Assembly: GCA_019358835.1 (NCBI GenBank)
Contig: JAHHIH010000011.1
Coordinates: 124,001-188,000 of the forward strand
Reading direction: 5' to 3'
DNA: 64,000 nt
DNA from: Tildeniella torsiva UHER 1998/13D
GTDB taxonomy: Bacteria > Cyanobacteriota > Cyanobacteriia > Phormidesmidales > Phormidesmidaceae
Positions 6,128 to 54,467 of the stretch are shown here, piece after piece (the stretch's first letter is position 1; each line of letters begins with the position of its first letter). Below the pieces are notes generated by a model, which did not search any database, was not told where the DNA came from, and saw only the letters and a program-made list of their open reading frames with translations. The translations under genes were made by a program, and so were the position numbers.

Positions 6128-6242
6128 TTTCACCAACTAGTTATGTTATACCTCTAAAGTCAAAATAGAAAAATCATATTCTTTCAAATCATTTGCTCAG
6201 AATTACCTCTATAGTCGTGTCGTTGCCCTTAGGGTGTTGTCG

Positions 6243-7148
6243 ATGAAAGTTAAAAGTCCTCTCACCGGCCATGACAGCGTAACTCTCCTGCAAACCTTTT
6301 CAGCTCAAAAGATTATTAGTGACTGGCAAAAGCTTTTCGATATAGATATCAATGGAGAACTTAGCTCCTGCTCAGACTTCTACCTTTTTCAGTGCAATAT
6401 TACTGGCCTCCGTTTTTTTTATCCGTTAGACATTTTTGGCTCAGCTCAACTCTATGAGAAACTCATGAAATTTGAGTGGTATTATATGAGCGACAAATGG
6501 GAATATCAAATCGCCCTTCAAGATTTACAAGGCGATAGAATAGCCCTAGAAATTGGTTGCGGACATGGTCACTTCGTTGCCCAGGCCAGCCAAAAGGGAA
6601 TCCAAATTGAAGGTATTGATTCTAATGATAGGGCTGTGCTTGAAGCTCAGCAGAGCGGACTTAACGTTCACCGACGATCGATCGAAGATCTGTTAGCCCA
6701 AAAGAAGAACCAATACGATTATCTGTGTAGCTTTCAGGTACTAGAGCACCTACCCAATCCATTAGAGTTTCTAAAAAATTGTACAGACCTCTTAAAGCGA
6801 GATGGAAAATTATTATTGAGTGTACCCAATGCAAACAGTTTTTTGAAGTACCAATATAACCTGCTGGATATGCCTCCTCACCATATGACCCAGTGGTCTG
6901 TTCGATCTTTTCGTGCTTTAGAAGATTTTTTACCACTAAAACTTGAAAATTCCCTTTTTGAACCTTTAGCTGAATACCATATTTCCGGCTACTTACAAGC
7001 GAAGGAAAATCAATTCAAAGAGATAGCATCTCGACTGCCCGTACCCTTAGTTAAATCTGCAATAAACAAATATGAAAGTTTTTTGAGAAAAGGTCTAAAT
7101 AGATATACCAAAGGTCAAAGCCTTTACGTCAAATTTCGGAAGAAGTAA
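6243..7148 (+). CDS. SAM-dependent methyltransferase (class I)
   Basis: About 301 residues with a class I methyltransferase core. Motif I is ALEIGCGHGHFVAQA at roughly residues 97-111, followed by an acidic residue in EGIDSNDRA, the motif LCSFQVLEHLPNP, and LLLSVPNANS. This resembles glycan or quinone methyltransferases of the Methyltransf_23 type. The start is the ATG at 6243, with an in-frame GTG at 6234. Its TAA overlaps the ATG of the next gene by one base (TAATG), so they are co-translated. The gene begins the AT-rich middle of the glycan cluster. Confidence 0.82.
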   Translation: MKVKSPLTGHDSVTLLQTFSAQKIISDWQKLFDIDINGELSSCSDFYLFQCNITGLRFFYPLDIFGSAQLYEKLMKFEWYYMSDKWEYQIALQDLQGDRIALEIGCGHGHFVAQASQKGIQIEGIDSNDRAVLEAQQSGLNVHRRSIEDLLAQKKNQYDYLCSFQVLEHLPNPLEFLKNCTDLLKRDGKLLLSVPNANSFLKYQYNLLDMPPHHMTQWSVRSFRALEDFLPLKLENSLFEPLAEYHISGYLQAKENQFKEIASRLPVPLVKSAINKYESFLRKGLNRYTKGQSLYVKFRKK

Positions 7149-9616
7149 TGAGATATCTCAACTTAGGATGCGGTAACCATTTCCACCCAGACTGGGTGAA
7201 TGTTGATTCCCAGGCGGTACAAGCTAATATCATTGTCCACAACATACGCACAGCTTTACCTTTTCCCAGCGACGCATTTGATGCGGTTTATCATTCCCAT
7301 GTGCTGGAGCATCTCCCTCGGACTGAGGCCAAATTTTTTCTTCAAGAATGTTTAAGGGTTCTTCGGCCAGGGGGAGTTCTACGGGTTGTTGTGCCAGATT
7401 TAGAACAAATTGCTCGGGAATATCTACGAACATTGGAAGAAGCCAAAAATGGTTCTGAAAAGGCAGCACATAATTATGATTGGATTTTATTAGAAATGTA
7501 TGACCAGGCTGTACGCCACCATTCTGGGGGCGATATGGCAAAGTATTTAGCCGCCAATGATATTTCTAATGAAGACTATGTCATTAAGCGCTTTGGTTAT
7601 GAAGGTGAAACACTAATAAAAAGTTTAAAAGGCCTCCATTTAGATGACTTACAAGAAATCACAGATTCAAAGAATACAGATGAAATTGCATTAGCCATTG
7701 GCCGATTCCGGTTGAGTGGTGAAGTTCATCTTTGGATGTATGATCACTATTCGTTGAGAAGACTGCTAAAGACCTCCGGGTTTAAAGATATTCGCGTTTG
7801 CGGTGCAGCAGAATCACAAATTTTGAATTTTTCCGACTATCACTTAGATATCCTAGAAAACGGACAGGTTAGAAAGCCTGACTCTTTGTTTATGGAAGCC
7901 ACCAAGCCTAATAGTATTGTCGATGGCTGGGCTTTTGAGCAAGAAGAATCCCCAAACAAGTTAAAAATAGTACAAATTTCAACTAGCGACATACAGGGTG
8001 GTGCAGCACGAGCCGCTTATCGACTTCACCAGGGGCTACGTTTAGTCAATCAAGATTCCTTAGTATTAGCTAGAGATCGAAGTTCAGACGATCAGTTTGT
8101 ATGTTCAGTAGCGGACTTAAAGCACACAGAAATTCCTTCGGATGACGATAGCCTTTATTCAGAAATTCAGCCTAACTATATTAATAATAACCGCACTGAA
8201 TTATCAAATACCCTATTTTCTTATCCCTATCCAGCTATCGATTTAACAAAAATTGAGCAGATCAATCAGGCAGACATCATAAATTTGCATTGGATTGCCT
8301 GGTTTCAGTCGGCTGAAACCATAGCTTCTCTTCTAGCCTTAGGCAAGCCAGTTGTATGGACTCTACATGATATGGCTGCTTTTACAGGAGGTTGCCATTA
8401 CTCCTCTGGTTGTCAAAAATACCAAACTAACTGCAGCCAATGTCCCCAACTAAGAGATGATAGATATGATTTAGCAGCATCAATCTTGCAAGACAAGATT
8501 AGTAAGTTATCTAGTTTTTCAAATTTAACCATAGTAACGCCAAGTCAATGGCTAGCAAACTGTGCCCGTAGCAGTCAATTATTTAAAGATCGTCAAATTG
8601 AAGTTATTCCATATGGTATAAATATCAATGCATTTAGTCCTATTCCCAAAATAGTTGCCAAGAGTCACTTAGGTATACCTGAAAGCACACTTACATTGCT
8701 TTTTGGCGCTGATTACAGTGTAGAGAAGCGAAAAGGGGTAGATCTCTTGGTTCAAGCACTAATTAAATGCTTTCAAGACCCTTTAGCACAGGAGATACTC
8801 AAAGAAGGGAGGGTTAAGATTTTAAATTTTGGCCATGGCTGCTCTAGCCTAGATCGCTTAGAGAGTTTAGGTATTCCTATAGTTTCGCTTGGGTACGTTA
8901 CCTCAGATGAAGAGTTGAGCTATATTTACTCAGCAGCTAATATTGTAATCCTGCCCTCTCTAGAGGATAATTTTCCTAACCTTCTATTAGAGTCGATGAG
9001 TTGTGGAACTCCTGTAATTGCATTTTCAGTAGGCGGAATGGTAGACCTGATAGACAATGATAAAACAGGAAGGCTGGTAGCTCTAAACGATGTTGACGGT
9101 CTATCTAAAGCTATTTTAGATGCCCTGAAAAACCCCAATAGATATGAGGAAATGGGCTTGCAAGCCCGCTTGAAGATCGAGCAGGGCTATTCCTTATCAG
9201 AGCAAGCCAATCGGTATTTAAAGCTCTACAAAGAGTTAATAAATAGCCATCAATCACATAAAGAGCCTATTTTTATCAAAAAACCTGACTCACTTGAGCC
9301 GCCAAATTTACATGAAATTGCCATTGAAGCAGGACGCATTGCTTTATTGAATGAGCGGCAGTCCTCTCAAAACCTTGGCGAAAAAGTCGAGCAGATTCAG
9401 CTTGAACTTCAGCAAATGCAGGCCGAGTTCCAAAAATCTCAAGCTGAACTTCAAAAGACTCAAGCTGAACTTCAAAAGACTCAAGCTGAACTTCAAAGGA
9501 CTCAAGCTAAACTTCAAAGGACTCAATCTCAGATAATTGATATGGAGGCTACTAAATTTTGGAAGCTTCGAAAAATTTGGGTTCAGATGAAATTCTTATT
9601 GAGGTTAAAAAAATGA
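7148..9616 (+). CDS. methyltransferase-glycosyltransferase fusion with C-terminal coiled coil
   Basis: 822 residues in three parts. Residues 1-245 are a SAM methyltransferase (YLNLGCGNHFHPDWVNVD, SHVLEHLPR, LRPGGVLRVVVPD). Residues about 270-705 are a GT4-type glycosyltransferase (IQGGAARAAYRL, LHDMAAFTGGCHY, and the donor-site motif PSLEDNFPNLLLESMSCGTPV with its E-x7-E pair). Residues about 735-800 are heptad-like repeats of QAELQKT, encoded by 21-bp DNA repeats. The coiled coil probably mediates assembly or length control (inference). The product would add and methylate sugars of the exported glycan at the cytoplasmic face. Confidence 0.83.
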   Translation: MRYLNLGCGNHFHPDWVNVDSQAVQANIIVHNIRTALPFPSDAFDAVYHSHVLEHLPRTEAKFFLQECLRVLRPGGVLRVVVPDLEQIAREYLRTLEEAKNGSEKAAHNYDWILLEMYDQAVRHHSGGDMAKYLAANDISNEDYVIKRFGYEGETLIKSLKGLHLDDLQEITDSKNTDEIALAIGRFRLSGEVHLWMYDHYSLRRLLKTSGFKDIRVCGAAESQILNFSDYHLDILENGQVRKPDSLFMEATKPNSIVDGWAFEQEESPNKLKIVQISTSDIQGGAARAAYRLHQGLRLVNQDSLVLARDRSSDDQFVCSVADLKHTEIPSDDDSLYSEIQPNYINNNRTELSNTLFSYPYPAIDLTKIEQINQADIINLHWIAWFQSAETIASLLALGKPVVWTLHDMAAFTGGCHYSSGCQKYQTNCSQCPQLRDDRYDLAASILQDKISKLSSFSNLTIVTPSQWLANCARSSQLFKDRQIEVIPYGININAFSPIPKIVAKSHLGIPESTLTLLFGADYSVEKRKGVDLLVQALIKCFQDPLAQEILKEGRVKILNFGHGCSSLDRLESLGIPIVSLGYVTSDEELSYIYSAANIVILPSLEDNFPNLLLESMSCGTPVIAFSVGGMVDLIDNDKTGRLVALNDVDGLSKAILDALKNPNRYEEMGLQARLKIEQGYSLSEQANRYLKLYKELINSHQSHKEPIFIKKPDSLEPPNLHEIAIEAGRIALLNERQSSQNLGEKVEQIQLELQQMQAEFQKSQAELQKTQAELQKTQAELQRTQAKLQRTQSQIIDMEATKFWKLRKIWVQMKFLLRLKK
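9431..9530 (+). repeat. 21-bp tandem repeats within the coiled-coil coding region
   Basis: About four and a half near-identical 21-bp units of the type CAAAAGACTCAAGCTGAACTT follow each other in frame. Two units (9452-9472 and 9473-9493) are identical. They encode a seven-residue QKTQAEL repeat, so copy-number change would lengthen or shorten the coiled coil without a frameshift. Confidence 0.85.
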
Positions 9617-9731
9617 ACTTTGGTGAGGTTAAGAGACTCTCTGCTTGCTAACTACTGGGAACCTACGGCTTGGCTTCTACTTAATAAGATTTTAAATTTG
9701 GTCTTCGGAAAATTGTTCGGGAGAGTCGTTC

Positions 9732-10625
9732 ATGAGTCAGATGTTGTTGAACCCTAAGATCTCGGTAATTATTCCCTCTCTTAATCAAGGAGTCTATCTA
9801 AAGCAGTGTATCGAATCGATATTGGCTCAGCATTACTCTGAGCTAGAGTTAATCATTATTGACGGCAAATCAGTTGACAAATCTGTCGAAATAATAAGGA
9901 AATATGAAGCTCATATATCTTTTTGGGTAAGTGAGCATGATAATGGCCAAAGCGATGCTATTAATAAGGGCTTTAATCGAGCAACTGGTGATATTGTCGC
10001 ATGGCTGAACGCTGATGATTATTATCTTCCAAAAGCTTTTGATCAGGTGAAAGAGGCTTATCAAGCTAGACCGTCTGCTCCTTTCTATTTTGGAGATGGT
10101 CTGCGTGTAGATAGGGTTGGGAAGACTATTTCTAAATTTTTCCCTACAGATAGAATTATATTTAATCGACAAGCTCTAGTAATGGGCTTGAATTATATTC
10201 TTCAACCTGCAACCTTTATTAGTCGAGAAGCTCTTGAGAAAGTTGGCTATTTGGATACTGATCTTCACTATGGAATGGACTCAGATCTTTGGATGAGGTT
10301 ATCAGTCCTAGATATTCCAGAAGCTATACAAACGGCACTGGCCGCTAGTAGAGAATACGAGACAACTAAAACTGCTACAGGTTCTTTCGCTCGAGTGGAG
10401 GAGCTTCGCAAGATCTCTATGAATCATTCAGGCCTGCCAATAACTCCCGGTGTGGTCTGTTACTTCCTAGATACTCTTTATAGATTCGTTCTAGAAAATG
10501 AAGTCATATTCTCAAAGTCCTATTCTGAAGATCTCCTCGTGCTCTGGCAAAAAACATCTTCCTCATTTGATTTTTTTGGGGCTAGACCAGATGGATTCCC
10601 AAAGCAAACAGATTTGGATGAATAG
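9732..10625 (+). CDS. glycosyltransferase family 2
   Basis: 297 residues with a GT-A fold. The opening is ISVIIPSLNQGVYLKQCIESI, the acidic region is LIIIDGKSVDKSVEII, and the metal-binding DxD-type motif sits in AWLNADDYYLP. A conserved WVSEHDNGQSDAINKGF region links it to the two other GT2 modules in this cluster (10.7 kb and 13.2 kb genes). It probably transfers a nucleotide-activated sugar onto the growing glycan. The DNA is AT-rich compared with the cluster flanks. Confidence 0.87.
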   Translation: MSQMLLNPKISVIIPSLNQGVYLKQCIESILAQHYSELELIIIDGKSVDKSVEIIRKYEAHISFWVSEHDNGQSDAINKGFNRATGDIVAWLNADDYYLPKAFDQVKEAYQARPSAPFYFGDGLRVDRVGKTISKFFPTDRIIFNRQALVMGLNYILQPATFISREALEKVGYLDTDLHYGMDSDLWMRLSVLDIPEAIQTALAASREYETTKTATGSFARVEELRKISMNHSGLPITPGVVCYFLDTLYRFVLENEVIFSKSYSEDLLVLWQKTSSSFDFFGARPDGFPKQTDLDE

Positions 10626-10707
10626 ATTTTATGGGGCACCTCCTATGTTGAGCTCAACTCGACTATAGTTTTGATTGAATTTGAGGCAATATCTAAGAGA
10701 ATGTTGG

Positions 10708-13110
10708 ATGATTAAGATGAGAATAGGTATTGATATAAGGCCTTTGGTTCTCGGTGCATCGGGTGGAATATCGCAATTAGTCAAAGGAACCTTTGAGCAT
10801 TTATTTGCTCTCTATCCCGAACATTATTTTTTTGTGTTTTGTACACCTTTTAATAGAATGCTTATTGATTATGAAAATGAGCATGTGAACTATTTAAGCT
10901 TACCTATTTCAACATATTATTATCAGCTGGATAAAGCGACGATAGGAGAAGACTTAGATGTGTTGTTCCGGGCCTATCCAATGGAAGATACGCTCACTTT
11001 TCCTTTAAGCAAGCAAATTTATTTAATCCCAGATATTCAGCATGAAGAATTTCCTGGTTTTTTCTCTGAGGATGTTTTGCGTGCTCGCCGAGAATCCTTT
11101 TCTAAAGCTCTGCGTGAGGCTGGGGCTATAGGGACTATTTCTGAGTTTGCACGAAGTACTCTACTCAATTTTCCTGGTACCCGCTGTACCGATATTTTCT
11201 TGATGGAGCCTTCGCTTCAAGATTTGCATCAAGACTTGTGCGAAGTTGAGTTGACTGATTTAGAAACTCAATTAGTTCCTGATGGGGATTATTTTATCTT
11301 TCCTGCTAACCTATGGAAACATAAAAATCATCGCGCTCTCCTCCAGGCATTTTCTCTCTTTATCGAGAAAACTGGTCGAGACGTGAAATTAGTACTGACT
11401 GGCTATCAAGAAGGATGGGTTCAACTTTTTGAAGCTTTCCCGGAACTGCCTGTGGTTCATTTAGGATTTGTCAGGCCAGAGTTCCTAAGAATACTTTTAG
11501 GAAGGGCAAAAGCTTTAGTTTTTTTCTCACTCTACGAAGGGTTTGGAATGCCCTTACTAGAGGCATTTAACGCAGGTACCCCTGTTATTTGCAGCAACAC
11601 GACGAGCCTGCCGGAAGTTGGTAAAGATGCGGTTCTGACTTGTGATCCTACCGACATAAAAGCTATCGCTAATCTCATGGAGCAGATTCTGACAGATGGT
11701 CAATTGAGAGATATGCTCATTAAGAGGGGTAAAGATCGACTTAGTAAATATTCTTGGGACAAGGCAGCTCACAATTTAATTGCTGCCTGCGAAAGAGTTA
11801 GGACGCGAATAGATCAATCGTTGCAAGTGTCATCTTTTGGTGACCAAACACAGCAACCTCTGGTTTCTATCGTTACGCCTTCCTATAATCAAGGGCGGTT
11901 TTTACGAAAAACCATCGAGAGCGTAATTAGCCAGAATTATTCTAATCTTGAATATTTTATTTTTGATGGTGGGTCAACAGACGATTCGATCGACATCTTA
12001 AAATCCTATGGCGATCGGTTTTCTTGGATTTCTGCTCCAGATAAGGGCCAAACTGACGCGATCAACAAAGGGATGAGACTTGCAAATGGCGAAATACTAG
12101 CATATTTGAATTCTGATGATGTGCTGCTTCCGGGGACTATTGAGAAAGTTGTTCATTTTTTCAATCAAAATCCTGACTGTGATCTTGTCTACGGTAAGGC
12201 ATTTTATATTGATGAAAGTGATCAAATCATAGGCCACTACAAAACAGCAGATTACTCCTTAAACCGATTGGTTGAGGACTGTATGGTATGCCAGCCAGCT
12301 GCTTTTTGGCGCAGTCGTGTTAAAGACAAAATCGGACTATTTGATGAGGCTCTGAACTATGCAATGGACTATGACTATTGGCTCCGCATTGCTACACAAT
12401 GTGGCAATATCTGTTTCTTGCCTGATAGCTTAGCTTGTTCACGCTTATACCCCGAAACGAAGACATGCTCTGCTCGGGCACAGATCTATAGTGAAATATT
12501 TAATATTAGTCGTAAGCATGTTGGTTATGTGCATGAAAATTATTATCAGGGACTCTGGCATTACCTAATTTTTGAGAAGGACAATTCTATTGCGCGATTA
12601 TTGCGCCGTTATCCAAAGCTATATCGTAGTTTGTACAAGCTCCATTACAAGCTATCAAATTCCCGGCAAGAATCAATAGGTAAGACTTTTGTACATCTAT
12701 TGCTGAAAGCAAGGGGAAAGTTAAAGGGTTTGATTAAAAAGTATAGTTCTCGATTCATACCTCTTAAACTAAGGGCTACTTCATTTGATAATGTGAATGG
12801 TTTTTGGCAAGATAATTGGCTGTCACCCGAAGTGACAATTCCAATAAAAAAGTTGGAAACTTCTCAAGATCTATATATTGCTGGGATAGCTCCAATTGAT
12901 CTTGAAATGACTGTTTACGTTGGCAACCAGACTATCGATCGGGTCAAAGTTTTGGCTCATCAGTATAGGATGATAAAACTATCTGTCATATTTCTTGAGG
13001 ATTCTTTGCTTAAGATTAAATTCTCCAAATCTGTTAAGGATTCAGACAACAGAAGAATATCATTTTTGCTTCAAGCTACTAATCTTTTCTCGGAGAAAGA
13101 CATTGGCTGA
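10708..13110 (+). CDS. bifunctional glycosyltransferase (GT4 + GT2)
   Basis: About 800 residues holding two complete transferase modules. The first is GT4-like (GIDIRPLVLGASGGISQL near the start, and FFSLYEGFGMPLLEAFNAG with an E-x7-E pair at about residue 275). The second is GT2-like (VSIVTPSYNQGRFLRKTIES, FDGGSTDDS, and a DxD-type NSDD). About 170 residues after these are not recognised. I place the start at ATG 10708 (or 10717); the TTG at 10675 is in frame but unlikely. It probably adds two successive sugars of the repeat unit (inference). Confidence 0.85.
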   Translation: MIKMRIGIDIRPLVLGASGGISQLVKGTFEHLFALYPEHYFFVFCTPFNRMLIDYENEHVNYLSLPISTYYYQLDKATIGEDLDVLFRAYPMEDTLTFPLSKQIYLIPDIQHEEFPGFFSEDVLRARRESFSKALREAGAIGTISEFARSTLLNFPGTRCTDIFLMEPSLQDLHQDLCEVELTDLETQLVPDGDYFIFPANLWKHKNHRALLQAFSLFIEKTGRDVKLVLTGYQEGWVQLFEAFPELPVVHLGFVRPEFLRILLGRAKALVFFSLYEGFGMPLLEAFNAGTPVICSNTTSLPEVGKDAVLTCDPTDIKAIANLMEQILTDGQLRDMLIKRGKDRLSKYSWDKAAHNLIAACERVRTRIDQSLQVSSFGDQTQQPLVSIVTPSYNQGRFLRKTIESVISQNYSNLEYFIFDGGSTDDSIDILKSYGDRFSWISAPDKGQTDAINKGMRLANGEILAYLNSDDVLLPGTIEKVVHFFNQNPDCDLVYGKAFYIDESDQIIGHYKTADYSLNRLVEDCMVCQPAAFWRSRVKDKIGLFDEALNYAMDYDYWLRIATQCGNICFLPDSLACSRLYPETKTCSARAQIYSEIFNISRKHVGYVHENYYQGLWHYLIFEKDNSIARLLRRYPKLYRSLYKLHYKLSNSRQESIGKTFVHLLLKARGKLKGLIKKYSSRFIPLKLRATSFDNVNGFWQDNWLSPEVTIPIKKLETSQDLYIAGIAPIDLEMTVYVGNQTIDRVKVLAHQYRMIKLSVIFLEDSLLKIKFSKSVKDSDNRRISFLLQATNLFSEKDIG

Positions 13111-13194
13111 TGACAGCAGTTAGGTTAGCTCGGTTGGACTGCTTTTAAAGGGCAATCGAGCTTTGGATAGTTGAATCTGTCAGGCTTACTCGTC

Positions 13195-14106
13195 ATGAAT
13201 CTAACGTTTAGTGTTGTTACTCCTTCTTATCAACAAGGTTGTTTTATTGAACGTACGATCAAAAGTGTTCTGGCTCAAAATGTAGATTTTGAGTTTGTTG
13301 TTATGGATGGTGGTAGCAAAGATGAAACTCTTGATGTTTTAGATACCTACAGCGATCGGCTCATATGGGTATCAGAGGTTGATGCTGGACAGGCTGATGC
13401 TGTCAATAAGGGTATTGAAAAAGCTACAGGCGATATTATTGCGTGGATTAATTCTGATGATATTTACTATCCTGGAGCCTTAGAGAAAGTAAAAGATATT
13501 TTCTCCAGGTATTCGGAGGTTCAGGTTGTGTATGGGAAAGCTGACTGGATTGGAGAAAAAGATGAGGTTTTAAAGGCATTTCCAACGGAGCCTTGGAGTT
13601 ACAAGAGACTCAAGGAGTCTTGCTATCTCTGTCAGCCAGCTGTATTTTTCCGGCGTTCTCTGGTCGAAAAATACGGTAGCCTGAATAAATCGCTCCAGTA
13701 CTGCATGGATTATGAACTGTGGCTGAGATATGGTGAGCATACTGACTTTTATTTCTTGTCTGACAAGCTGGCAGGTTCTAGGATGTATGCTTCGAACAAA
13801 ACCATGGGTCAAACTTTAGTTGCCCATGCCGAGATCAATCGTATGTTGGAGAATAAGCTAGGGGTGATTCCTGCTAACTGGTTGCTGGGTTATGCGCTAG
13901 TTAAGGTAGAGAAAACCTACGGTATTAGCCGCTACGATCGCACCCAAACCCATCGCTTTGTGCGCCTATTAGTGCAGTTTTCATGCCGGGAGTTAATAGC
14001 TCACAACCCGCTGGCTTTCTTGAAAGTTGCTCCTAAGATGATGTTTTGGTTTTTGGTGCCTGACCGCGCCTGGTTTCGGCGTGAAGACATTTTGGCACTG
14101 GTTTAG
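13195..14106 (+). CDS. glycosyltransferase family 2
   Basis: 303 residues. The GT2 core shows FSVVTPSYQQGCFIERTIKS, FVVMDGGSKDETLDV and a DxD-type motif in AWINSDDIYYPG. It is closely similar in pattern to the GT2 half of the preceding gene (shared CQPAxFxR and AMDYDYW/CMDYELW positions), which suggests duplication within the cluster. The start is the ATG at 13195; a TTG at 13171 is in frame. The stop is two bases before the ATG of the next gene, so translation is likely coupled. Confidence 0.86.
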   Translation: MNLTFSVVTPSYQQGCFIERTIKSVLAQNVDFEFVVMDGGSKDETLDVLDTYSDRLIWVSEVDAGQADAVNKGIEKATGDIIAWINSDDIYYPGALEKVKDIFSRYSEVQVVYGKADWIGEKDEVLKAFPTEPWSYKRLKESCYLCQPAVFFRRSLVEKYGSLNKSLQYCMDYELWLRYGEHTDFYFLSDKLAGSRMYASNKTMGQTLVAHAEINRMLENKLGVIPANWLLGYALVKVEKTYGISRYDRTQTHRFVRLLVQFSCRELIAHNPLAFLKVAPKMMFWFLVPDRAWFRREDILALV

Positions 14107-24822: not shown

Positions 24823-25905
24823 ATGAGCCATGAGTTTCGGGATTTGCTCAAGCAGGTCGGCAGCGGCAGCCACACCTCCAGGGCGCTGACCCGGGCTGAG
24901 GCCGAAGCCGCCACCCGCATGATGCTGACCCAAACGGCTACCCCGGCCCAGATTGGCGCGTTTATGATTGCCCACCGCATCAAGCGCCCCACTGTCGATG
25001 AGCTGGCGGGTGTCCTGGATGCCTACGCAGCGCTGGGGCCGACTATGCCCGCGATCGCTCCTGACAGCGCCTACAGCCGCCCTACCCTGGTGCTAAGCTG
25101 CCCCTACGACGGGCGATCGCGCACTGCCCCGGTCACCCCCATCACCGCCCTAGTGCTGGCGGCGGCGGGGGTGCCGGTGGTGATGCACGGGGGCGATCGC
25201 ATGCCCACTAAAGAAGGGATTCCACTGATTGAACTGTGGCAACAGTTGGGCGTTGATCTGCGCCCCCACAGTCTAGAGCAAGCCCACACCCTGCTCAACC
25301 GCACTGGCCTCGGCTTTGTCTACCTGCCCCAGCACTTTCCACTGGCCCACGGGCTGGTGCCCTACCGCGAGCAAATTGGCAAACGCCCCCCCTTTGCCAC
25401 GGTAGAGCTACTGTGGTCGCCCTATGCTGGCCCCCACACCCTGGCGATGGGCTTCGTGCACCCGCCCACCGAGGAGTTTGCTAAGGGCACCTTTGCCCTG
25501 CGGGGCCAAACCGACTGGATTACGGTTAAGGGGCTAGAGGGCAGCTGCGATCTGGCGCGGGGAAGAACGGCGATCGTGGGGGTCAACCATCCGGGGCAGA
25601 CCGATCGCCTGCTACTGCACCCCCGCGACTACGGGTTTGAGGGCGACGATGTGGATCTGGGGGATGAGGAGACGCTGGGCGATCGCCTGCTCGATATCCT
25701 CTCCGGCAACCCCTCAGAGCTAGCTAAAACCGCCCTGTGGAATGCCGGGTTTTATCTGTGGCAGGGGGGAGCAGCGGAATCGTTAGAGGCGGGGCTAGCC
25801 CAAGCTCAGGACATCATTACCACAGGCGGCGCAATGGCTAAGCTAAATGAGTTGCGGCTCCAAGCCACCAGCTTAAATCAACCGCTGGCCTACAGCCGCA
25901 GCTAG
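24823..25905 (+). CDS. anthranilate phosphoribosyltransferase-like protein (TrpD2/YbiB type)
   Basis: 360 residues with the fold of glycosyltransferase family 3. The N-terminal helical domain is RALTRAEAEAATRMMLTQTA, then AQIGAFMIAHRIKRPTVDEL. The phosphoribosyl-binding domain has VVMHGGDRM in place of the usual loop. The glycine-rich GTGGD loop of true TrpD is replaced by SCPYDGRSRTAP, so tryptophan synthesis is unlikely. YbiB/TrpD2 proteins are reported to bind nucleic acid. It follows ntcB by 46 bases on the same strand. A decayed second copy of its 3' end lies at 28301-28375. Confidence 0.8.
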   Translation: MSHEFRDLLKQVGSGSHTSRALTRAEAEAATRMMLTQTATPAQIGAFMIAHRIKRPTVDELAGVLDAYAALGPTMPAIAPDSAYSRPTLVLSCPYDGRSRTAPVTPITALVLAAAGVPVVMHGGDRMPTKEGIPLIELWQQLGVDLRPHSLEQAHTLLNRTGLGFVYLPQHFPLAHGLVPYREQIGKRPPFATVELLWSPYAGPHTLAMGFVHPPTEEFAKGTFALRGQTDWITVKGLEGSCDLARGRTAIVGVNHPGQTDRLLLHPRDYGFEGDDVDLGDEETLGDRLLDILSGNPSELAKTALWNAGFYLWQGGAAESLEAGLAQAQDIITTGGAMAKLNELRLQATSLNQPLAYSRS

Positions 25906-25953: not shown

Positions 25954-26634
25954 TCAAGCGGCGGCTAATAACTCGACTAAATCAGCTTTTTTGAGCTTAG
26001 AAAGGCCCTTAACATCGCGCTTTTTGGCCATGTCTTTGAGCTGCTGAGTAGTCAGAGTCTCCAGAATCTTTCGGTCTGTAATCACCTCTGGCATTGGCTC
26101 AGGCGTTAGATAAAACACCTCCTCCAGAGCCTTGAGCTTTTTGCCGCCTGTGATTCGACAACCCAGCTTTGTAATCGGCTGCAAGTTTTTCCAGTATTGC
26201 CGAGGTGCTTCATCGAGACGAGCGACTAGAGAAGCATGGCTGACCCCTTTCAGGGGCGTGGCAGGCTGGTGCAGCACATAGTCTACTGCCGCAGAAATCT
26301 CTTCACGGCTAGCGATAGAAAGATTTGTTTTAGGCAGAACCTCTTGCGCCAGCGATCGAGAAATTGCCACAGTTTCTGGCAAATCATCGGCAATGATGCA
26401 CCAAACTTCAGCCAGCCCAGCTTCAGCCGCCACAGCATAGACAAAGCTATTGCCAATCACCTGATATTGATCGGGGGCAGTTTCTTTAACAATGACAGGA
26501 ATCCAGTTTCGCCCATCTGGCCCTAGCTGGTTAGCTGCCGCTTGAATCAGGTATTCATGGACATCGGTGGGCTCACCCGACTCAATTTCATCAAAGGGCA
26601 GGCACATCAGGTTGCCAACATCTGAAAAGCTCAT
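25954..26634 (-). CDS. ParB-like protein with C-terminal Rho_N/SAP-like domain
   Basis: 226 residues. The N-terminal 100 resemble a ParB/Srx domain (MCLPFDEI; then NWIPVIVKE, YQVIGNSFVYAVAAEAGL, VWCIIADD). The C-terminal 45 (LKDMAKKRDVKGLSKLKKADLVELL) are a Rho-N/SAP-like helix-extension-helix nucleic-acid-binding motif. A clear ParB helix-turn-helix is not evident in the middle, though VDYVLHQPATPLKGVSHASL might be a remnant. It starts within the TAA stop of the upstream ParA gene (TAATG), so the two form one operon. A function cannot be given; a partner for the nuclease-ParA is likely. Confidence 0.72.
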   Translation of the reverse strand: MSFSDVGNLMCLPFDEIESGEPTDVHEYLIQAAANQLGPDGRNWIPVIVKETAPDQYQVIGNSFVYAVAAEAGLAEVWCIIADDLPETVAISRSLAQEVLPKTNLSIASREEISAAVDYVLHQPATPLKGVSHASLVARLDEAPRQYWKNLQPITKLGCRITGGKKLKALEEVFYLTPEPMPEVITDRKILETLTTQQLKDMAKKRDVKGLSKLKKADLVELLAAA

Positions 26635-27974
26635 TAGAGAAAATACTCCTTTACAAGGTTTTGGTATTGCTCACGGGCAGGCTTGAACGCAAAAGCAGCG
26701 GGCATATGCATGAAATCTGCCCTGGGGATATAAGCCATATAAGGAACGCTAACCATATCCAAGTTCTTCTGACCCTTACAGTATTTTGGATAGAAGTAGT
26801 GAGTTAGGTCAAAACCCGTTTCGCTTTTAGATTTGACAATTATTTTCTTAATAGCATTATGCATCAAGGCGACCTGAAAAGGTGCGGATCTTGTGGGTGT
26901 GTTGTTCATAAAAATAGGCAGCACAATAGGGCCAGACTCTTGTACTGCTCGTCGCTTCTCTCGCATTGCTGGAATGAATTGAGTAATTGCTGTGCTGGCA
27001 TTCTGGAGAGAGTGGAGATTGTCATGGCGAGCCGGAATCAGCACCACATCAGCAGCATAGATTGCCTTTTGGGCAAAAAGACGCCAGTTTGGTGGAGAGT
27101 CAATCAAAATGTAGTCGTAATCGTTTTTGAGAGATTCTAGCGCCTTGTGTAAGTCGTGTAGCTTTACAATTTGCCTCAGCTTAGCCTCGTCTAACTCTCC
27201 AGAAAATGCATCATCAGCTGTAATAACATCAAACCCTAAAGGCTCCTTCAAAGAAGGATGTTCTAACTTATAGGGAGTAATAATATCTCTAATGTTTGCA
27301 CTCTTTCCTTTCAAAACGCCTAAGACTTTATTCTTGAGTGGCGATAGATTAAGGGCATCGCCAAGATCGCTTTGGTTGTGATCAAAATCAATTACCAAAA
27401 CCTTCTTTTTATACAGCGTTAAGGTTGCAGCAAGGTTGATAGTTGTAGTGGTTTTGCCTACGCCGCCCTTGTTGTTATATAGCGCAATAGTTAGCGCTTT
27501 GGGCGGACTTCCTATGTGTTGCCTAAGGAGTTTGACAACCTGCTTCAGGTTTCCTTCAAGGGATAGACAAGAGGTGACTGGGTGAACAATTTTTCCATGT
27601 TTCCGAAAAAGTTGAACGTGAAGGGAGTTCATGATCAACCCCCACTTCACTGATTTGGAAGACGGAGCAAGCAAATATCTTTTTAACTGAAGAACAGTAT
27701 CACGATGGTCAGGATACATCTCGCCTGAAAGATTTGCAGGTCTACCTTTAACCTCCATGTAAAGGTAGGGATCGTTCTGGGTGTGGAGAAAAATATCATC
27801 TCCGGTATTCTTGCGCGCTGCTTGGTCAACAGCCCATTTTCCAATCCCAAACTTAGGTACGATTTCCTCGTCACTAAAGCCCAACGCATTGAGGAAAGGT
27901 TTAGAGAAAATAGACTCGACAACAGCCTCTGCTGCATCTGGAGGCAGCGATTGAAATGCTTGTTCTAGGCTCAT
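26634..27974 (-). CDS. ParA ATPase with N-terminal HsdR_N-type nuclease-like domain
   Basis: 446 residues in two parts. Residues about 15-150 match the HsdR_N (type I restriction R-subunit N-terminal) PD-(D/E)xK pattern: E20, D60 in GDDIF, E74-V-K76 in MEVKGR, and Q96 in LQLKRYLL. The downstream strand VKWGLIMNSLHVQLFRKHG is typical of the family. Residues about 160-446 are a ParA/MinD ATPase with NNKGGVGKTTTTINLA (Walker A, lysines K169 and K174), VIDFDHNQSDL (A') and YILIDSPPNW (Walker B). All key residues of both domains are present. Ordinary ParA proteins have a DNA-binding domain or nothing at this end. Confidence 0.8.
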   Translation of the reverse strand: MSLEQAFQSLPPDAAEAVVESIFSKPFLNALGFSDEEIVPKFGIGKWAVDQAARKNTGDDIFLHTQNDPYLYMEVKGRPANLSGEMYPDHRDTVLQLKRYLLAPSSKSVKWGLIMNSLHVQLFRKHGKIVHPVTSCLSLEGNLKQVVKLLRQHIGSPPKALTIALYNNKGGVGKTTTTINLAATLTLYKKKVLVIDFDHNQSDLGDALNLSPLKNKVLGVLKGKSANIRDIITPYKLEHPSLKEPLGFDVITADDAFSGELDEAKLRQIVKLHDLHKALESLKNDYDYILIDSPPNWRLFAQKAIYAADVVLIPARHDNLHSLQNASTAITQFIPAMREKRRAVQESGPIVLPIFMNNTPTRSAPFQVALMHNAIKKIIVKSKSETGFDLTHYFYPKYCKGQKNLDMVSVPYMAYIPRADFMHMPAAFAFKPAREQYQNLVKEYFL

Positions 27975-28744
27975 GGTTATTTTAGGGGCTTTACTCTAGT
28001 CGTACCGAATGCAACTGAAGGTATCCGTAAATTTTCTGTTGATTTCACTAAAGCTTTATTCAATGCAGCAGGCAAAGTGGCTGTTCATTATCTTTTAGCC
28101 CTGCTAGATCCGCACATTCAACATACCCAACTGACCACGATCGCCATCAGCTACTCTTGCCAATCATTTTTGTGTCGAAAATAGTTCTTGTTAGGAGACC
28201 CGTTGTAGAGCCTGCACTTCCAAACTTCAACCACAACAGAGCCCTAAGTCTCCATATATAAAAAGGGATCTTTTGTACAAAGCGGGGTGATAAGGCGGTT
28301 CTGGGCGATCGCCCGCTCGGCGTCCCAGTTGGCGATGCTTCTGAACTCGCCAAAACTGCCCTATGGGAATGCCGAATCTTCCCGCCGCCGGTTCCCTCGT
28401 CTGGGGCAACTCTGCTCAACCCGGCGATCGCCACTATAAATCAAGAGAAAACTCAGTTGACAGAAGCATTCTCGATCAAGTAACGGAAAAATCTCTGATA
28501 AAGGCAAAAATCCGCTGTTTATCAAAGAATTGTAAAGGTTGCATAGGAATTCTATAAAGTGCCTCTGGCCCTGCAACATCAGGGTTTTGGGCGCGTCATG
28601 GAAGCTCAGCAATGAGGAGCATTGCGATTTCGATTGATGAGACGGGCAGACTGCGGAAGTCGCCTAGTTTAGGCGGCACTGCGGGAGTGTCTATCTACCT
28701 CATCACCATTACACTCCAAACGACTCTACGGGGAATGAACGAGA
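27975..28744. other. 770-bp region upstream of the ParA cassette, with a gene relic
   Basis: No intact gene is supported. The left half (27975-28290) is the probable promoter region of the ParA operon and contains AT-rich tracts (TATATAAAAA near 28255-28265). The middle (28301-28375) is a relic of the TrpD2-like gene. The right part leads to the SLH-protein gene. I see no clear iterated parS-like sites. Confidence 0.6.
28301..28375 (+). pseudogene. relic of the 3' region of the TrpD2-like gene
   Basis: Translated from 28301 this reads LGDRPLGVPVGDASELAKTALW. The intact gene at 25675 reads LGDRLLDILSGNPSELAKTALW, giving 15 of 22 identities, including nine in a row (SELAKTALW). Differences within those nine codons are in third positions. 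After TGG an extra G breaks the frame, though GAATGCCG still matches. It has the same orientation as the intact gene, 2.6 kb away, on the far side of the ParA-ParB cassette. Confidence 0.75.
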
Positions 28745-29878
<1,134 letters not shown>

Positions 29879-43377: not shown

Positions 43378-43450
43378 GGGGAATTAGCTCAGTTGGTAGA
43401 GCGCTGCGATCGCACCGCAGAGGTCAGGAGTTCGAATCTCCTATTCTCCA
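43378..43450 (+). tRNA. tRNA-Ala (anticodon CGC)
   Basis: A 73-base cloverleaf: acceptor GGGGAAT/ATTCTCC, D arm GCTC-AGTTGGTA-GAGC, anticodon stem CTGCG/CGCAG with loop ATCGCAC, variable AGGTC, and T arm AGGAG-TTCGAAT-CTCCT, then A73. The acceptor holds the G3-U70 pair that defines alanine tRNAs, and the anticodon CGC reads GCG. CCA is not encoded. The integrase gene lies just downstream, so this tRNA is the probable attachment site of the island. Confidence 0.95.
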
Positions 43451-43625
43451 TTCTCTCAAACCCATATAGGTCAAGGGCTGTACCGCCCATCAAAAAAGTG
43501 ATTCAGAGCCCTGCTGAGTTCCTGCGGCTAGACGCTGTTATGCCACTTTTAGCCATTTTGGTTAGAATTTGGATCGAAATTGGATCGAAAGATTCCCTCG
43601 ATCCATTCTCTGTAGGGCTTTCACC

Positions 43626-44741
43626 ATGGCTAATACTGCTAGAGCTAAGAAGGGCACCGTCTCTGTGACTAGCGACCGAGATCGGTTGCGTCTGGGCTGG
43701 CGTTACAAAGGGGAACGCTATTTTCTGTTTATCGGGCTCCCTGACACCGTCACGAATCGGAGAGTAGCCGAGGCTAAGGCATCTCAAATCGAGCTCGACA
43801 TAATGTCAGGGCATTTCGATCCAACGCTTCGAGCCTATAAATTGCAGCTTCCCAACCGCAGCCAGCTGACTGTCACCGGCCTATTCAACAAATTCATCCA
43901 GCACAAATCGAAGACAGTCGTTTCGGCCACTCTGGATAAATATCATGGACTGCTGAACTATTTGGAGGAATTCTTTAAGACTCGTTCGGTTGCTGAAGTC
44001 AGCGTAGCCGAGGCCGAAAAATTCACCAGCTGGTATGACTCTCAAGATTTATCTAAGGTCGTCATTCGAGAGCGCCTTGGCCTTTTGAAGGCTTGCTGGG
44101 AGTGGGGGATCGAGCAGGCTTTAGTTGAGTCTAATCCTTGGATAGATATGCCTTTAAGAATTAAGGTTCCGCCAAAACAAATGCCTAAGCCTTTCACCGA
44201 GGCAGAAATCAAATCAATCGTTGAGGCGTTTAAAGCTAACCGTTATTATCGCCACTACGTCAATTTTGTGGAGTTTCGCTTTGGCAGTGGTTGCCGTACT
44301 GGAGAGATCGTGGGCCTACGCTGGAAACATATCTCTGAGGATTGCTCAACCATTTGGATTGGTGAGGCTTTAGTCAAAGGCAAGCAGAAAGCCACAAAAA
44401 CGAATCGGTCTCGGTATATCACCCTGACATCTAAATTGCAGACAATGCTTCAGGGATTGAGGCAAGCGGATAGCAATCCCAATGATTTGGTTTTTAAGGG
44501 GCCAAAAGGAGCTCCTATCGATGCAAAAAACTTTGCCCAACGAGGCTGGCAGAAAATTTTAACTAAGTTAGGTATTGATTACCAAAGACCTTACAATACC
44601 CGACATGCCTTGATTTCTCATGCCCTGGATAAGGGTATGAATCCGGTGGAAGTAGCTCAGTTAACAGGACACGATGTGCAAACGCTTTACCGAAATTATG
44701 CAGGTAACGTCAACAGCCGCCCTCGCTTACCAGAAATATAA
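43626..44741 (+). CDS. tyrosine-type site-specific integrase
   Basis: About 371 residues. The N-terminal arm-binding domain (VSVTSDRDRLRLGWRYKGE, resembling DUF3596/AP2-like) is followed by a SAM-like core-binding domain. The catalytic domain shows RFGSGCRTGEIVGLRW (first Arg), YNTRHALISHAL (second box, with Tyr in place of the first His) and LTGHDVQTLYRNYAG (His and nucleophile Tyr). I place the start at ATG 43626; the TTG at 43569 is in frame. It probably integrates the island into the adjacent tRNA-Ala. Confidence 0.9.
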   Translation: MANTARAKKGTVSVTSDRDRLRLGWRYKGERYFLFIGLPDTVTNRRVAEAKASQIELDIMSGHFDPTLRAYKLQLPNRSQLTVTGLFNKFIQHKSKTVVSATLDKYHGLLNYLEEFFKTRSVAEVSVAEAEKFTSWYDSQDLSKVVIRERLGLLKACWEWGIEQALVESNPWIDMPLRIKVPPKQMPKPFTEAEIKSIVEAFKANRYYRHYVNFVEFRFGSGCRTGEIVGLRWKHISEDCSTIWIGEALVKGKQKATKTNRSRYITLTSKLQTMLQGLRQADSNPNDLVFKGPKGAPIDAKNFAQRGWQKILTKLGIDYQRPYNTRHALISHALDKGMNPVEVAQLTGHDVQTLYRNYAGNVNSRPRLPEI

Positions 44742-44757
44742 GCACCAAGCGTAGGTC

Positions 44758-45402
44758 TTAGGATAGGTTGCGCCCGAACCAGACCACTTTCCCCATGAGG
44801 CTGAGGCCGCTGGATGTCTCAGATGACTGAATTGAGAAGGCTTCATAGGCAGGGTGATCACTGATCACCCTGAGCGTGTCATCGGCTATATACTGCAAGC
44901 GCTTGATGAGCAGCCGATTATCGAGTTTGAGCAGGTAGATACCGTGACTCACGGTTTCTAAGTCACGATCATTGGTGTCCACCAGTGCTAAATCCCCCTG
45001 CTGAAGGGTCGGTTCCATGCTTTCATCGACCACTTGGGTGAGCAGCAAATTTTCAAAGGCGTTGGGGAACTCTGCTCGGAGCCAGCCCGTCTCAAAGGCC
45101 AGCGGATCCTTATAAACGTAATCTTCGGCTGACGCTTTGGATGAGTCTTTGGCCCCCGCAATAAGTTGACCGGTTGCCAGCCACTCAACGCTGACCTTGG
45201 CTGTGCGGGCTATAGCGAGCAGTGCCGGTCTTGTGGGTTCGCTTTGGCCATTGAGATATTGGCGGAGCACGGTGTCAGAAAAGCCGCAATCTCTGGCAAA
45301 GCCCCGAATGCTCTTGTCTCCAACCGCCTGTTTTAGGCGGACTGGAAACTGATCAACTTCCGTGGCATCCGCCTGCGTCTCGTCAGGTAAGGGATTAGTC
45401 AT
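44758..45402 (-). CDS. CI/LexA-like repressor with S24 peptidase domain
   Basis: 214 residues. The N-terminal XRE-type helix-turn-helix (RGFARDCGFSDTVLRQYLNG) is joined to an S24 self-cleavage domain. The nucleophile Ser lies in DESMEPTLQQGDLALVD and the Lys in YLLKLDNRLLIKRLQ. This is the layout of phage CI and LexA-type repressors that autocleave when RecA is activated, so the island may be SOS-inducible. It is divergent from a Cro/Ner-like gene with operator-like palindromes between. Confidence 0.9.
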   Translation of the reverse strand: MTNPLPDETQADATEVDQFPVRLKQAVGDKSIRGFARDCGFSDTVLRQYLNGQSEPTRPALLAIARTAKVSVEWLATGQLIAGAKDSSKASAEDYVYKDPLAFETGWLRAEFPNAFENLLLTQVVDESMEPTLQQGDLALVDTNDRDLETVSHGIYLLKLDNRLLIKRLQYIADDTLRVISDHPAYEAFSIQSSETSSGLSLMGKVVWFGRNLS

Positions 45403-45416
45403 AAGGGTTACATTAA

Positions 45417-45449
45417 TTGCAGATGCAAATCATAACACTTGACATGCAA
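45417..45449. promoter_or_regulatory. operator/promoter between the repressor and Cro-like genes
   Basis: TTGCAGATGCAA (45417-45428) is a perfect palindrome around GA. A related half site, TTGACATGCAA, sits at 45439-45449. The same bases give a good -35 box for the rightward promoter, TTGACA at 45439-45444, with TAACTT 17 bases on. This fits a repressor-controlled divergent switch. Confidence 0.6.
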
Positions 45450-45499
45450 TTTATTTATTGCTAACTTCATCGATATATTGATGGAGCTAAGACAATTCT

Positions 45500-45694
45500 A
45501 TGCATGTAGAAGACATTAAAGCAGCTCTACGCAAGCAGGGCTGGACTTTAACCAGCATCGCAAAAGAACTGAATATTGGCACCTCGGCAGTCTCTCATGC
45601 CTTGACTCGACAGCGATCGCGCCGCATCGAGCAGATCGTGGCGGGCAAACTTGGCCTGCCTCCCCATGAGATTTGGCCTCAACGGTATAAATGA
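45500..45694 (+). CDS. Ner/Nlp-like helix-turn-helix protein (Cro-like)
   Basis: 64 residues. The sequence MHVEDIKAALRKQGWTLTSI, then AKELNIGTSAVSHALTR and GLPPHEIWPQRY, matches the Ner/SfsB-type winged helix family found in phage Mu-like elements. Its position, divergent from the S24 repressor, suggests a Cro-like antagonist of the repressor. The next gene starts 13 bases later. Confidence 0.83.
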   Translation: MHVEDIKAALRKQGWTLTSIAKELNIGTSAVSHALTRQRSRRIEQIVAGKLGLPPHEIWPQRYK

Positions 45695-45707
45695 GGAAGG
45701 ATGACCC

Positions 45708-45977
45708 ATGGTTCAATTTGTCAGCAAGCAGGAAGCTACCCAGTCGCTGAAGCTCAGCGGTACAACCTTGAGGCGCTATCGAGTGCAGGGGCTGTTGATC
45801 GAGGGCGTTCACTGGGTTCGAGTGAATAGCCGCTGCATTCGCTACAACCTGGAACTAATCAAGGACTGGCTCCACAACCGCCATGACCCGGCGGCTCACC
45901 AACGGGCCATTGAGATCTACCAGGCCAGTTTGTTGAGCAACCAGCGCAAGATTCCTAAACGATCTGGACATCGATAA
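45708..45977 (+). CDS. excisionase-like helix-turn-helix protein
   Basis: 89 residues. The N-terminal half has a MerR/Xis-like winged helix pattern: VSKQEATQSLKLSGTTLRRY, then GLLIEGVHWVRVNSRCIRYN. The C-terminal 40 residues are helical and basic. Such proteins act as recombination directionality factors or phage regulators. The identification is by pattern and by the neighbouring integrase and repressor. Confidence 0.65.
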   Translation: MVQFVSKQEATQSLKLSGTTLRRYRVQGLLIEGVHWVRVNSRCIRYNLELIKDWLHNRHDPAAHQRAIEIYQASLLSNQRKIPKRSGHR

Positions 45978-46304
45978 AAAGATCGTTCAATCAACTATAA
46001 GGCTTCAAGGCTTAATCAAGTCTGTGATTAAGAATCTGGCTTGAAATCTCAGCCTCAAAACCTATGAAAAAACACCCTAACCATTGACTGGCGAGGGTGC
46101 TGAATCTTTTCGTTTGTTTTCTAAGCCAGGCCAATCAACATCCTGATGTGGTTTTCGCCGAACCAGCCAGGGCATTAATCTGCTGCTAGAAGTAGTGTCT
46201 TTAACTATAGCAAAGACATTGGAAATGTCCAGCCTCGGCACAGCTAACGGTTAACAACAGCTGGTTGATTGTGGTGGCCTGGCTCCTAAACTTAGGAGCT
46301 AACC
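45978..46304. other. 327-bp leader region of the DUF3987 gene
   Basis: No gene is supported. It has a weak hairpin CACCCT...AGGGTG near 46073-46099, with A and T runs on its sides, and a hairpin that covers the ribosome binding site of the next gene (46282-46299). The first part is AT-rich with repeated AAGGCTT-like words. Confidence 0.5.
46282..46299 (+). promoter_or_regulatory. hairpin masking the Shine-Dalgarno of the DUF3987 gene
   Basis: GCTCCTAA (46282-46289) and TTAGGAGC (46292-46299) are perfectly complementary, and the AGGAG is the ribosome binding site for ATG 46305 (six-base spacer). Folding of the mRNA would hide it. Whether this controls translation is inference; the complementarity is seen directly. 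Confidence 0.5.
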
Positions 46305-48847: not shown

Positions 48848-48863
48848 GTCTACCGAAAGTCGA

Positions 48864-48964: not shown

Positions 48965-49114
48965 GGCGTTGCTGATTCAGGGTATGAAGCGACGGCTCAA
49001 ATCTTTGAAAACTCCTTCCGGATTTCGCAAATTCATACTGCCATTCAGCAACGCCGCCTAAGCTACGAGCACGTAGGCCAACACGGCGCGTGCAGCCTTA
49101 AAGCAATCTTCTTG

Positions 49115-54464: not shown

Positions 54465-54467
54465 GCA

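What the first reader, a model, noticed from the sequence alone, without database searches (positions are those of the whole stretch)
25954..27974. Nuclease-ParA fusion paired with a ParB/Rho_N protein: a two-gene system of unknown function
Seen: one ORF joins an HsdR_N-like nuclease domain with all expected residues (E20, D60, E74-x-K76, Q96) to a complete ParA ATPase. Its stop overlaps the start of a ParB-like protein ending in a nucleic-acid-binding Rho_N/SAP motif. There is no replication gene nearby, so ordinary plasmid partition is unlikely. Inference: it may recognise and cut foreign or unpartitioned DNA, with ParA ATP hydrolysis controlling the nuclease, or it may be a selfish partition cassette.
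Basis: partly seen in the sequence, partly recalled or inferred. Interest (0 to 1): 0.8.

Follow-up and report, generated by a model that had tools for sequence, protein, structure and literature searches.

The report
Nuclease-ParA and ParB-like gene pair
Many cyanobacteria carry an unstudied pair of genes in which a likely DNA-cutting enzyme is fused to the motor that normally moves DNA to daughter cells, together with a DNA-clinging partner; its conservation suggests a working DNA-cutting machine, perhaps one that excludes rival DNA.

Summary
The pair is real and belongs to a large cyanobacterial family for which I found no description. Gene A (26634-27974, -) joins an HsdR_N-type PD-(D/E)XK nuclease domain to a Soj-like ParA ATPase; gene B (25954-26634, -) joins a ParB fold, a helical module and Rho_N. 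In 102 full-length homologues E16, E74, Q96 and the ParA lysines are invariant, D50 is kept in 100, K76 in 101. The 80 loci listed from a GTDB-wide scan are all cyanobacterial; B lies beside A in 75 of 81 loci. Replication, relaxase or ParM genes were found near it in 2 of 110 loci, on plasmids with other partition genes. In the window's genus 17 of 26 species carry it, none with two intact copies, at four or more positions, and one syntenic copy looks allelically replaced. No defence island was shown. Remote relatives occur on plasmids, once as the only annotated ParA-type gene. Best reading: a ParAB-derived, ATP-controlled endonuclease acting on competing or foreign DNA (0.4); function is inferred, untested.

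The parts
26634..27974 (-). Gene A: HsdR_N-type nuclease fused to ParA ATPase, 446 aa
   Evidence: ORF; Pfam AAA_31; AlphaFold2 pLDDT 92.6; 37 of 386 phylum genomes hold a homologue at E<=2e-70 (counted by hand)
27570..27974 (-). PD-(D/E)XK nuclease domain, residues 1-135 (E16, D50, E74-x-K76, Q96)
   Evidence: fold order; residue survey; profile link to HSDR_N_2
26637..27503 (-). ParA/Soj ATPase domain, residues 158-446 (KGGVGKT at 169-175, D292)
25954..26634 (-). Gene B: ParB-fold protein with helical module and Rho_N, 226 aa
   Evidence: ORF; pLDDT 93.4; beside A in 75 of 81 loci
26338..26634 (-). ParB-CTPase fold, residues 1-99, without the GxxR phosphate motif (GNSFVYA instead)
   Evidence: Z 12.4 to 7bnr; N62 in 108 of 109 B proteins, Arg at no position 59-66
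26095..26334 (-). Helical module, residues 101-180, HhH/SAM-like by weak evidence; 12 of 109 homologues end in such a module instead of Rho_N, in part of them as a second copy
   Evidence: Z 6.0 to XcpX 5vtm; HHH_3 hits in sister families below cut-off; alignment, tails
25957..26079 (-). Rho_N / SAP-like domain, residues 186-226
   Evidence: Pfam 27.7 vs 24.9 bits; Z 6.6, rmsd 1.0 over 41 residues to Rho 2a8v
28284..28374 (+). Decayed second copy of the 3' end of the neighbouring Glycos_transf_3 gene (24823-25905), on the far side of the pair: scar of the insertion
   Evidence: 71% over 90 bases; alignment with empty sites

Best explanation
A two-gene, ParAB-derived, ATP-controlled endonuclease that probably excludes competing or foreign DNA. 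Shown by sequence or model: A has a nuclease domain with a conserved catalytic site joined to a canonical deviant-Walker ParA; B has a ParB fold without the canonical NTP motif plus two likely nucleic-acid-binding modules; the two genes are an operon. Inferred: ATP lets A form the ParA sandwich dimer on DNA, which brings two nuclease domains together; B, spread on or bound to DNA, contacts A through its conserved N-terminal VGNLM motif and triggers ATP turnover, so B decides where or when A cuts. Inferred from genomics: the target is DNA that competes with the resident replicon (plasmid, phage or a rival copy of the locus), because the pair is patchy, mobile, carried by chromosomes, plasmids and a phage-like contig, and not tied to replication.
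For: Active-site conservation in 102 homologues, the five nuclease residues kept also in six loci where no B was found. Predicted nuclease fold. Two Nostoc plasmids carry the pair beside ParM and other ParA-type systems. A 58-kb IMG/VR contig with terminase, Ant, Erf and repressor matches carries it. In the genus 17 of 26 genomes have it, none with two intact copies, at four or more positions. Composition alien to the flanks (GC 43-50% vs mostly 57-66%). At the shared site, window vs L089, the pair is near synonymous saturation (pS 0.79 and 0.69) while 16 flanking genes show 0.23-0.54. Precedent: GiPD474, a prophage-encoded ParA/MinD-like ATPase, gives broad phage resistance (PMC12724215, title and passages read).
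Against: No defence island around it, Uma2-type neighbours apart. Same neighbours in all 7 sampled genomes of genus g31 (Microcystis), as a housekeeping gene might have; one of those copies (L020/L052) has an internal stop. One homologue (L047) lost D50 and K76 and one (L150) D50 yet keep the operon. Against L085, at the same site, the pair's pS (B 0.33, A 0.46) is in or just above the flanks' range (0.24-0.43), so replacement is seen in one of two comparisons; low GC3 could also inflate pS. No recognition or modification component is evident. No activity has been measured.
Confidence: 0.4

Rival explanations
1. A partition or stability system whose nuclease acts on its own replicon, for example resolving multimers or removing unsegregated copies; chromosomal copies are integrated remnants put to a similar use.
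For: ParA and ParB folds in one operon; a related fusion is the only annotated ParA-type gene on the 12.6-kb CyRepA1 plasmid ABRG53g and relatives lie on plasmids pPg_01, pLBA and Nostoc unnamed10.
Against: Replicon genes near the pair in 2 of 110 loci of this subfamily; those plasmids carry other partition systems; no HTH reader was recognised in B and no shared site upstream was found.
Confidence: 0.25
2. A chromosomal maintenance factor of polyploid cyanobacteria: B binds single strands, junctions or transcripts through HhH and Rho_N, and A cuts aberrant DNA in an ATP-dependent way.
For: Ordinary chromosomal genes as neighbours where maps were read; presence in all 7 sampled genomes of genus g31; only cyanobacteria among the 80 listed loci.
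Against: Patchy: 37 of 386 genomes and 17 of 26 in one genus; moves and is replaced; also on plasmids and a phage-like contig.
Confidence: 0.2
3. An ordinary ParA-type positioning or segregation pair in which the nuclease domain only binds DNA.
For: Dead-site homologue L047 keeps the operon; nuclease folds can be co-opted as binding domains (recalled).
Against: Catalytic residues retained in 100-102 of 102 homologues are hard to explain without catalysis.
Confidence: 0.1

Closest known systems
ParABS chromosome/plasmid partition (Soj/ParA, Spo0J/ParB)
   Same: ParA ATPase fold and motifs, ParB N-terminal fold, A-B operon order
   Different: Nuclease domain fused to ParA; B lacks GxxR, no HTH recognised, ends in helical module and Rho_N; little replicon linkage
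Type I restriction HsdR subunit (HSDR_N nuclease domain)
   Same: Nuclease motif E..D..ExK..Q and fold order; sister families match HSDR_N_2
   Different: No helicase/translocase part found; ParA ATPase in its place; the partner gene is B, not HsdM or HsdS
GiPD474, prophage ParA-like phage-resistance protein (PMC12724215, passages read)
   Same: AAA_31/ParA-type ATPase linked to mobile DNA
   Different: Single gene in Enterobacteriaceae; no nuclease domain reported in the passages read
ParB-CTPase fold fusion proteins surveyed in PMC12704722 (outline, sections 5 and 7 and passages read)
   Same: ParB fold joined to new domains, often on mobile DNA
   Different: The word Rho does not occur in its main text; section 7 names ParB-DUF3850 as the only fusion consistently encoded beside parA; HhH was not searched for
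PADLOC candidate PDC-M28B
   Same: Weak match around the Walker A region (E 1.4e-7, residues 158-199)
   Different: Match does not extend into the nuclease domain; what PDC-M28B does is not known to me, and a paper search gave nothing on it

Membership tests
ParA/MinD ATPase | Deviant Walker A with signature lysine (KGGVGKT) and Walker B Asp | tested here: met
   K169, K174, D292 in 102 of 102
ParA/MinD ATPase | ParA fold | tested here: met
   Z 28.6 to 6iub, rmsd 2.9 over 254
PD-(D/E)XK / HsdR_N nuclease domain | Catalytic D and E-x-K, with the Q of the QxxxY motif (motif name recalled) | tested here: met
   D50 100, E74 102, K76 101, Q96 102 of 102; Y100 89 of 102
PD-(D/E)XK / HsdR_N nuclease domain | Characteristic fold | tested here: inconclusive
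   Element order fits in a high-confidence model, but the rows shown by the fold searches are ParA-type matches and the domain could not be searched alone
PD-(D/E)XK / HsdR_N nuclease domain | Match to Pfam HSDR_N or HSDR_N_2 | tested here: inconclusive
   This protein: none at E<=1; sisters L353 36.8 and L348 25.8 bits vs cut-off 25; hhalign link to L353's family prob 97.1
Type I restriction system (HsdR subunit) | Helicase/translocase motor after the nuclease | tested here: not met
   Pfam finds a ParA-type ATPase there and no helicase
ParABS partition system | ParB NTP-binding GxxR motif | tested here: not met
   Position 62 is Asn in 108 of 109 B proteins and no Arg stands at 59-66
ParABS partition system | HTH domain reading parS | tested here: inconclusive
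   No Pfam HTH; fold match to ParB covers 8-99 only
ParABS partition system | parS-like sites by the operon | tested here: inconclusive
   In 97 upstream regions only GCGATCGC-type words and ATAAAGCTT stand above shuffles
ParABS partition system | Stabilises its replicon | not testable with these tools
   needs a plasmid-loss assay
Rho_N domain family | Pfam cut-off and fold | tested here: met
   27.7 vs 24.9 bits; Z 6.6 to 2a8v
Known anti-phage system (PADLOC) | Full-length model match | tested here: not met
   Only the Walker A region of A matches; B has none
Known anti-phage system (PADLOC) | Defence-island neighbourhood | tested here: inconclusive
   58 vs 42 PADLOC models among 120 neighbours and 120 controls, only 25 of each shown and the number of proteins hit not returned; Uma2 6 of 120 vs none found

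The most novel reading that the evidence does not exclude
A modification-free DNA-exclusion system in which a ParA ATPase surfs DNA and gates a type-I-like nuclease, while a ParB-derived, NTP-motif-less adaptor marks self or target; each genome keeps a single allele, and incoming alleles displace resident ones, as a selfish or immune locus would.
Probability: 0.3. Interest if true: 0.85.

Novelty: new variant of a known kind. Interest (0 to 1): 0.62.

Why it matters
If the nuclease is active, this would be a ParA-type DNA-positioning ATPase fused to a nuclease, spread through cyanobacteria in several divergent subfamilies (six by my grouping). It would link partition machinery to DNA cutting and could contribute to barriers against plasmids or transformation in cyanobacteria. 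The invariant residues give direct point-mutant tests (E74, K76, K174).

Tried and rejected
Ordinary plasmid partition for this subfamily: set behind the main reading because the PriCT-type replication protein, MOBP relaxase and ParM occur near the pair only in L036 and L037 of 110 loci. Eight query proteins from Nostoc, Pseudanabaena and Leptolyngbya plasmids were used, so other replicon types could be missed. The 110 loci are 4.9-33 kb long (99 of them 10 kb or more) and some are one place fetched twice (99 distinct upstream ends). The plParA query hit 118 sequences because it matches A itself and is not counted; plParB hit L036 only; integrase queries hit L036, L037, L059, L105, L112 and L116.

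Defence-island membership: not shown. The largest neighbour class was Uma2/PDC-S03, 6 of 120; it is not among the 25 of 42 families shown for the control, and blastp with three Uma2 neighbours found 4 in the neighbour set and none in the control. The 120 neighbours come from 263 candidates of 45 loci: 148 drawn at random, then trimmed by hand to fit the residue limit.

Accelerated protein evolution of A: replaced by allelic replacement as the likelier cause, since synonymous sites also diverge; low GC3 is a caveat, and the L085 comparison does not show it. Within B the pS is uneven (0.12 to 0.51 vs L085; 0.40 to 0.83 vs L089), which suggests mosaic recombination.

Transposon-like ends: 121 loci were compared for repeats flanking the pair; 10 loci (8 distinct places, L089, L280 and L290 being one) had direct and 3 inverted matches, against 4 of 242 swapped controls. 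Inspection of L070, L104 and L040 showed no duplicated gene ends; only the window's lineage shows the gene-3'-end scar. No target duplication or inverted ends were seen at a second location.

A common upstream operator: none found phylum-wide.

Structure of the nuclease domain against PDB: fold searches were filled by ParA; sequence-profile searches of PDB gave nothing convincing.

ParA-domain tree (FastTree, 268 columns): subfamilies I, IV, V and VI lie together apart from the other ParAs; II and III did not resolve with them, so one or several fusion events remain open. Rows lost because the script's Walker pattern missed them: both Pseudanabaena family V proteins and both Nostoc plasmid ParAs; no ParA ORF was picked up from L004 and L006.

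Literature: the titles and abstract starts listed by searches show no paper on this fusion; lists were cut at 20, and the library lacks most subscription papers and bioRxiv.

Full report
What is there. The window is G000:C41:124001-188000 of a cyanobacterial genome. On the minus strand, gene A (26634-27974, 446 aa) and gene B (25954-26634, 226 aa) share one base, TAATG, with an AAGGAG in front. GC is 43% and 50% for the two genes; the genes on either side run from 53% to 66%, most at 57% or more.

Gene A. Pfam sees only ParA-type ATPase matches (best AAA_31, 2.4e-31). AlphaFold2 on an alignment of 24 sequences gave pLDDT 92.6 and pTM 0.92; residues 158-446 match Soj/ParA (Z 28.6, rmsd 2.9, 254 aligned), and residues 1-135 show helix 16-30, strands 38-44, 47-53, 71-75, helix 88-101, strands 111-115 and 119-126, the order of PD-(D/E)XK nucleases (recalled), with D50, E74-x-K76 and Q96 at the expected places. 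In 102 distinct full-length homologues: E16 102, D50 100, E74 102, K76 101, Q96 102, Y100 89, K169 102, K174 102, D292 102. L047 has lost both D50 and K76, and L150 has lost D50. Six loci without a detectable B (L042, L069, L072, L073, L074, L162) keep all five nuclease residues, though Y100 is Leu in three.

Why HsdR_N. This protein has no HSDR_N match. Searching outwards I found other cyanobacterial ParA proteins with a nuclease-like N-terminus followed by a ParB-like gene: II (for example L346, L348), III (L349, L353), IV (L352, L077), V (L038, L039, L357, L358) and VI (L075, L076) (the numbering is mine, and for L346 no ParB-like gene was recognised in the stretch read). L353 matches HSDR_N_2 at 36.8 bits and L348 at 25.8 (cut-off 25); their partners match ParB_N above cut-off and HHH_3 weakly. 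Profile comparison links the N-terminus of family I with III (prob 97.1, E 5e-11) and II (96.8). A profile of family II's N-terminus finds 58 of 373 genomes at E<=1e-12; 46 are strong (E<=2e-50), the other 12 lie between 1e-21 and 1e-13.

Gene B. The model (pLDDT 93.4) has a ParB fold at 8-99 (Z 12.4 to M. xanthus ParB), a helical module at 101-180 with only a weak match (Z 6.0 to XcpX) and Rho_N at 186-226 (Z 6.6, rmsd 1.0). The ParB phosphate motif GxxR is replaced: N62 in 108 of 109, no Arg at 59-66. Of 109 B proteins 96 end in a Rho_N-like tail (94 by pattern, L091 and L300 by eye), 12 end in the helical module and L065 in neither. Near-invariant G7 and L9 in VGNLM recall the N-terminal ParA-contact motif of ParB; that is inference.

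Distribution. In 386 cyanobacterial genomes 37 have a match at E<=2e-70 (my count); the tally of 369 at E<=1e-3 is mostly other ParAs, and partial or remoter matches exist in G078, G145, G133, G310 and G165. The genome-contig scan found 122 relatives of the N-terminus; the 80 listed are all cyanobacteria by title, the other 42 were not shown. Of 81 loci (80 plus one viral contig), 75 have B within two ORFs of A; of the rest, L107, L117 and L132 end at the contig edge, L123 runs out after 663 bases, L162 has none and L136 has no full A. In the first set of 45 loci, 38 have B. Phage records: none covers 80% of A. Plasmid records: 5 do, two of them family I.

Context. In all 7 sampled genomes of genus g31 the gene is present with the same two upstream neighbours (clusters 4 and 5); three of these loci show the atp operon in the stretch read (L050, L052, L054), and loci of two other genera are also next to atp (L045, L057, L047). 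Replicon genes were found near the pair in 2 of 110 loci. Nostoc sp. UHCC 0870 plasmid unnamed4 carries the pair plus ParM and two ParAB operons; unnamed9 carries ParM and a ParA-type gene. Family V members sit on Pseudanabaena plasmid ABRG53g (12.6 kb, CyRepA1, only annotated ParA-type gene), P. galeata pPg_01, Nostoc unnamed10 beside a ParAB operon and L. boryana pLBA, which also has a terminase. The IMG/VR contig of L165 has a terminase match (phrog_2, 3.5e-28), an Erf-like protein, Ant-like protein and repressors and no DnaB match.

Movement. In the window's genus 17 of 26 genomes hold A (E<=1e-60); 16 give one match and G419 two fragments of one broken gene. Positions: beside the gene L090:8120-9487 in G393, G394, G396, G397, G403 (a truncated copy), G407 and G418; between the Glycos_transf_3 and SLH genes in G000, G395, G405 and G398; beside a sulfatase-like gene in G392 and G402; elsewhere in G401, whose first site is empty. 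G400's copy is 25 kb from its Glycos_transf_3 gene and far from the other two markers, a likely fifth place; G387 and G419 were not placed. G393, G396, G403 and G397 lack the pair at the window's site though they carry it at the first; G405 and G401 lack it at the first site though they carry it elsewhere, and G389, without the gene, is also empty there. At the window's site the native 3' end of the Glycos_transf_3 gene survives as a decayed copy beyond the pair, while the 3' end now joined to the gene differs from that of the empty sites: the insertion came in with a donor's gene end, probably by homologous recombination (inference). Between window and L089 the 16 flanking genes have pS 0.23-0.54, the pair 0.79 (A) and 0.69 (B): different alleles at one place. 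Between window and L085 the five flanking genes have 0.24-0.43, B 0.33 and A 0.46: no clear replacement.

Mechanism. Shown: domains, residues, operon, changes of place. Inferred: ATP-dependent ParA dimerisation pairs two nuclease domains; B senses or marks DNA and stimulates turnover; the target is competing DNA. Partition remains a live rival (0.25), because remote relatives look like plasmid partition genes. The lack of a defence neighbourhood and the constant locus in Microcystis are the chief facts against exclusion.

Novelty. No NCBIfam family among the 25 shown of 31, and no PADLOC family, covers the whole protein, and the lists given by the paper searches show no description of the fusion. 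A ParA-like anti-phage protein is known, GiPD474 (PMC12724215, passages read). PMC12704722 (outline, sections 5 and 7, passages) surveys ParB-fold fusions; what I read of it does not mention this one. DefensePredictor (PMC13092281) has no ParA or ParB in its main text (term search). I file the pair as a new variant of the ParAB kind, not as a member of ParABS, because the ParB motif test failed.

Noticed in passing
window 43378-63231: tRNA-Ala followed by a tyrosine integrase with an Arm-binding domain, an S24-type repressor, DUF3987, DUF499, DUF4365 and DUF1156/methylase proteins: probably an integrated element, separate from the pair. DUF499 ATPases belong to the BREX-related 'Type-1 BR' systems of PMC12839542 (passage seen).
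   Followed up: partly
L345-L354; families II and III: A chromosomal HsdR_N-ParA plus ParB_N/HhH operon in other cyanobacteria (58 of 373 genomes by an N-terminal profile), for which I saw no description either.
   Followed up: partly
L357 (Pseudanabaena plasmid ABRG53g) 10781-12166 and L358 6564-7949: Family V ParA has KGGVSKT, a serine in place of the glycine of Walker A (L038 and L039 have alanine), with the nuclease motif kept.
   Followed up: no
L047, 9337-10716: A homologue that lost both D50 and K76 while keeping ParA and B: a natural dead-nuclease variant.
   Followed up: no
window 28745-29878: SLH-domain protein with acidic Asp runs encoded by a GAC/GAT tandem repeat.
   Followed up: no
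window 6234-14106: Block of about 40% GC with glycosyltransferase-like genes between regions of about 55% GC; perhaps a transferred polysaccharide cluster (gene kinds from reading the sequences).
   Followed up: no
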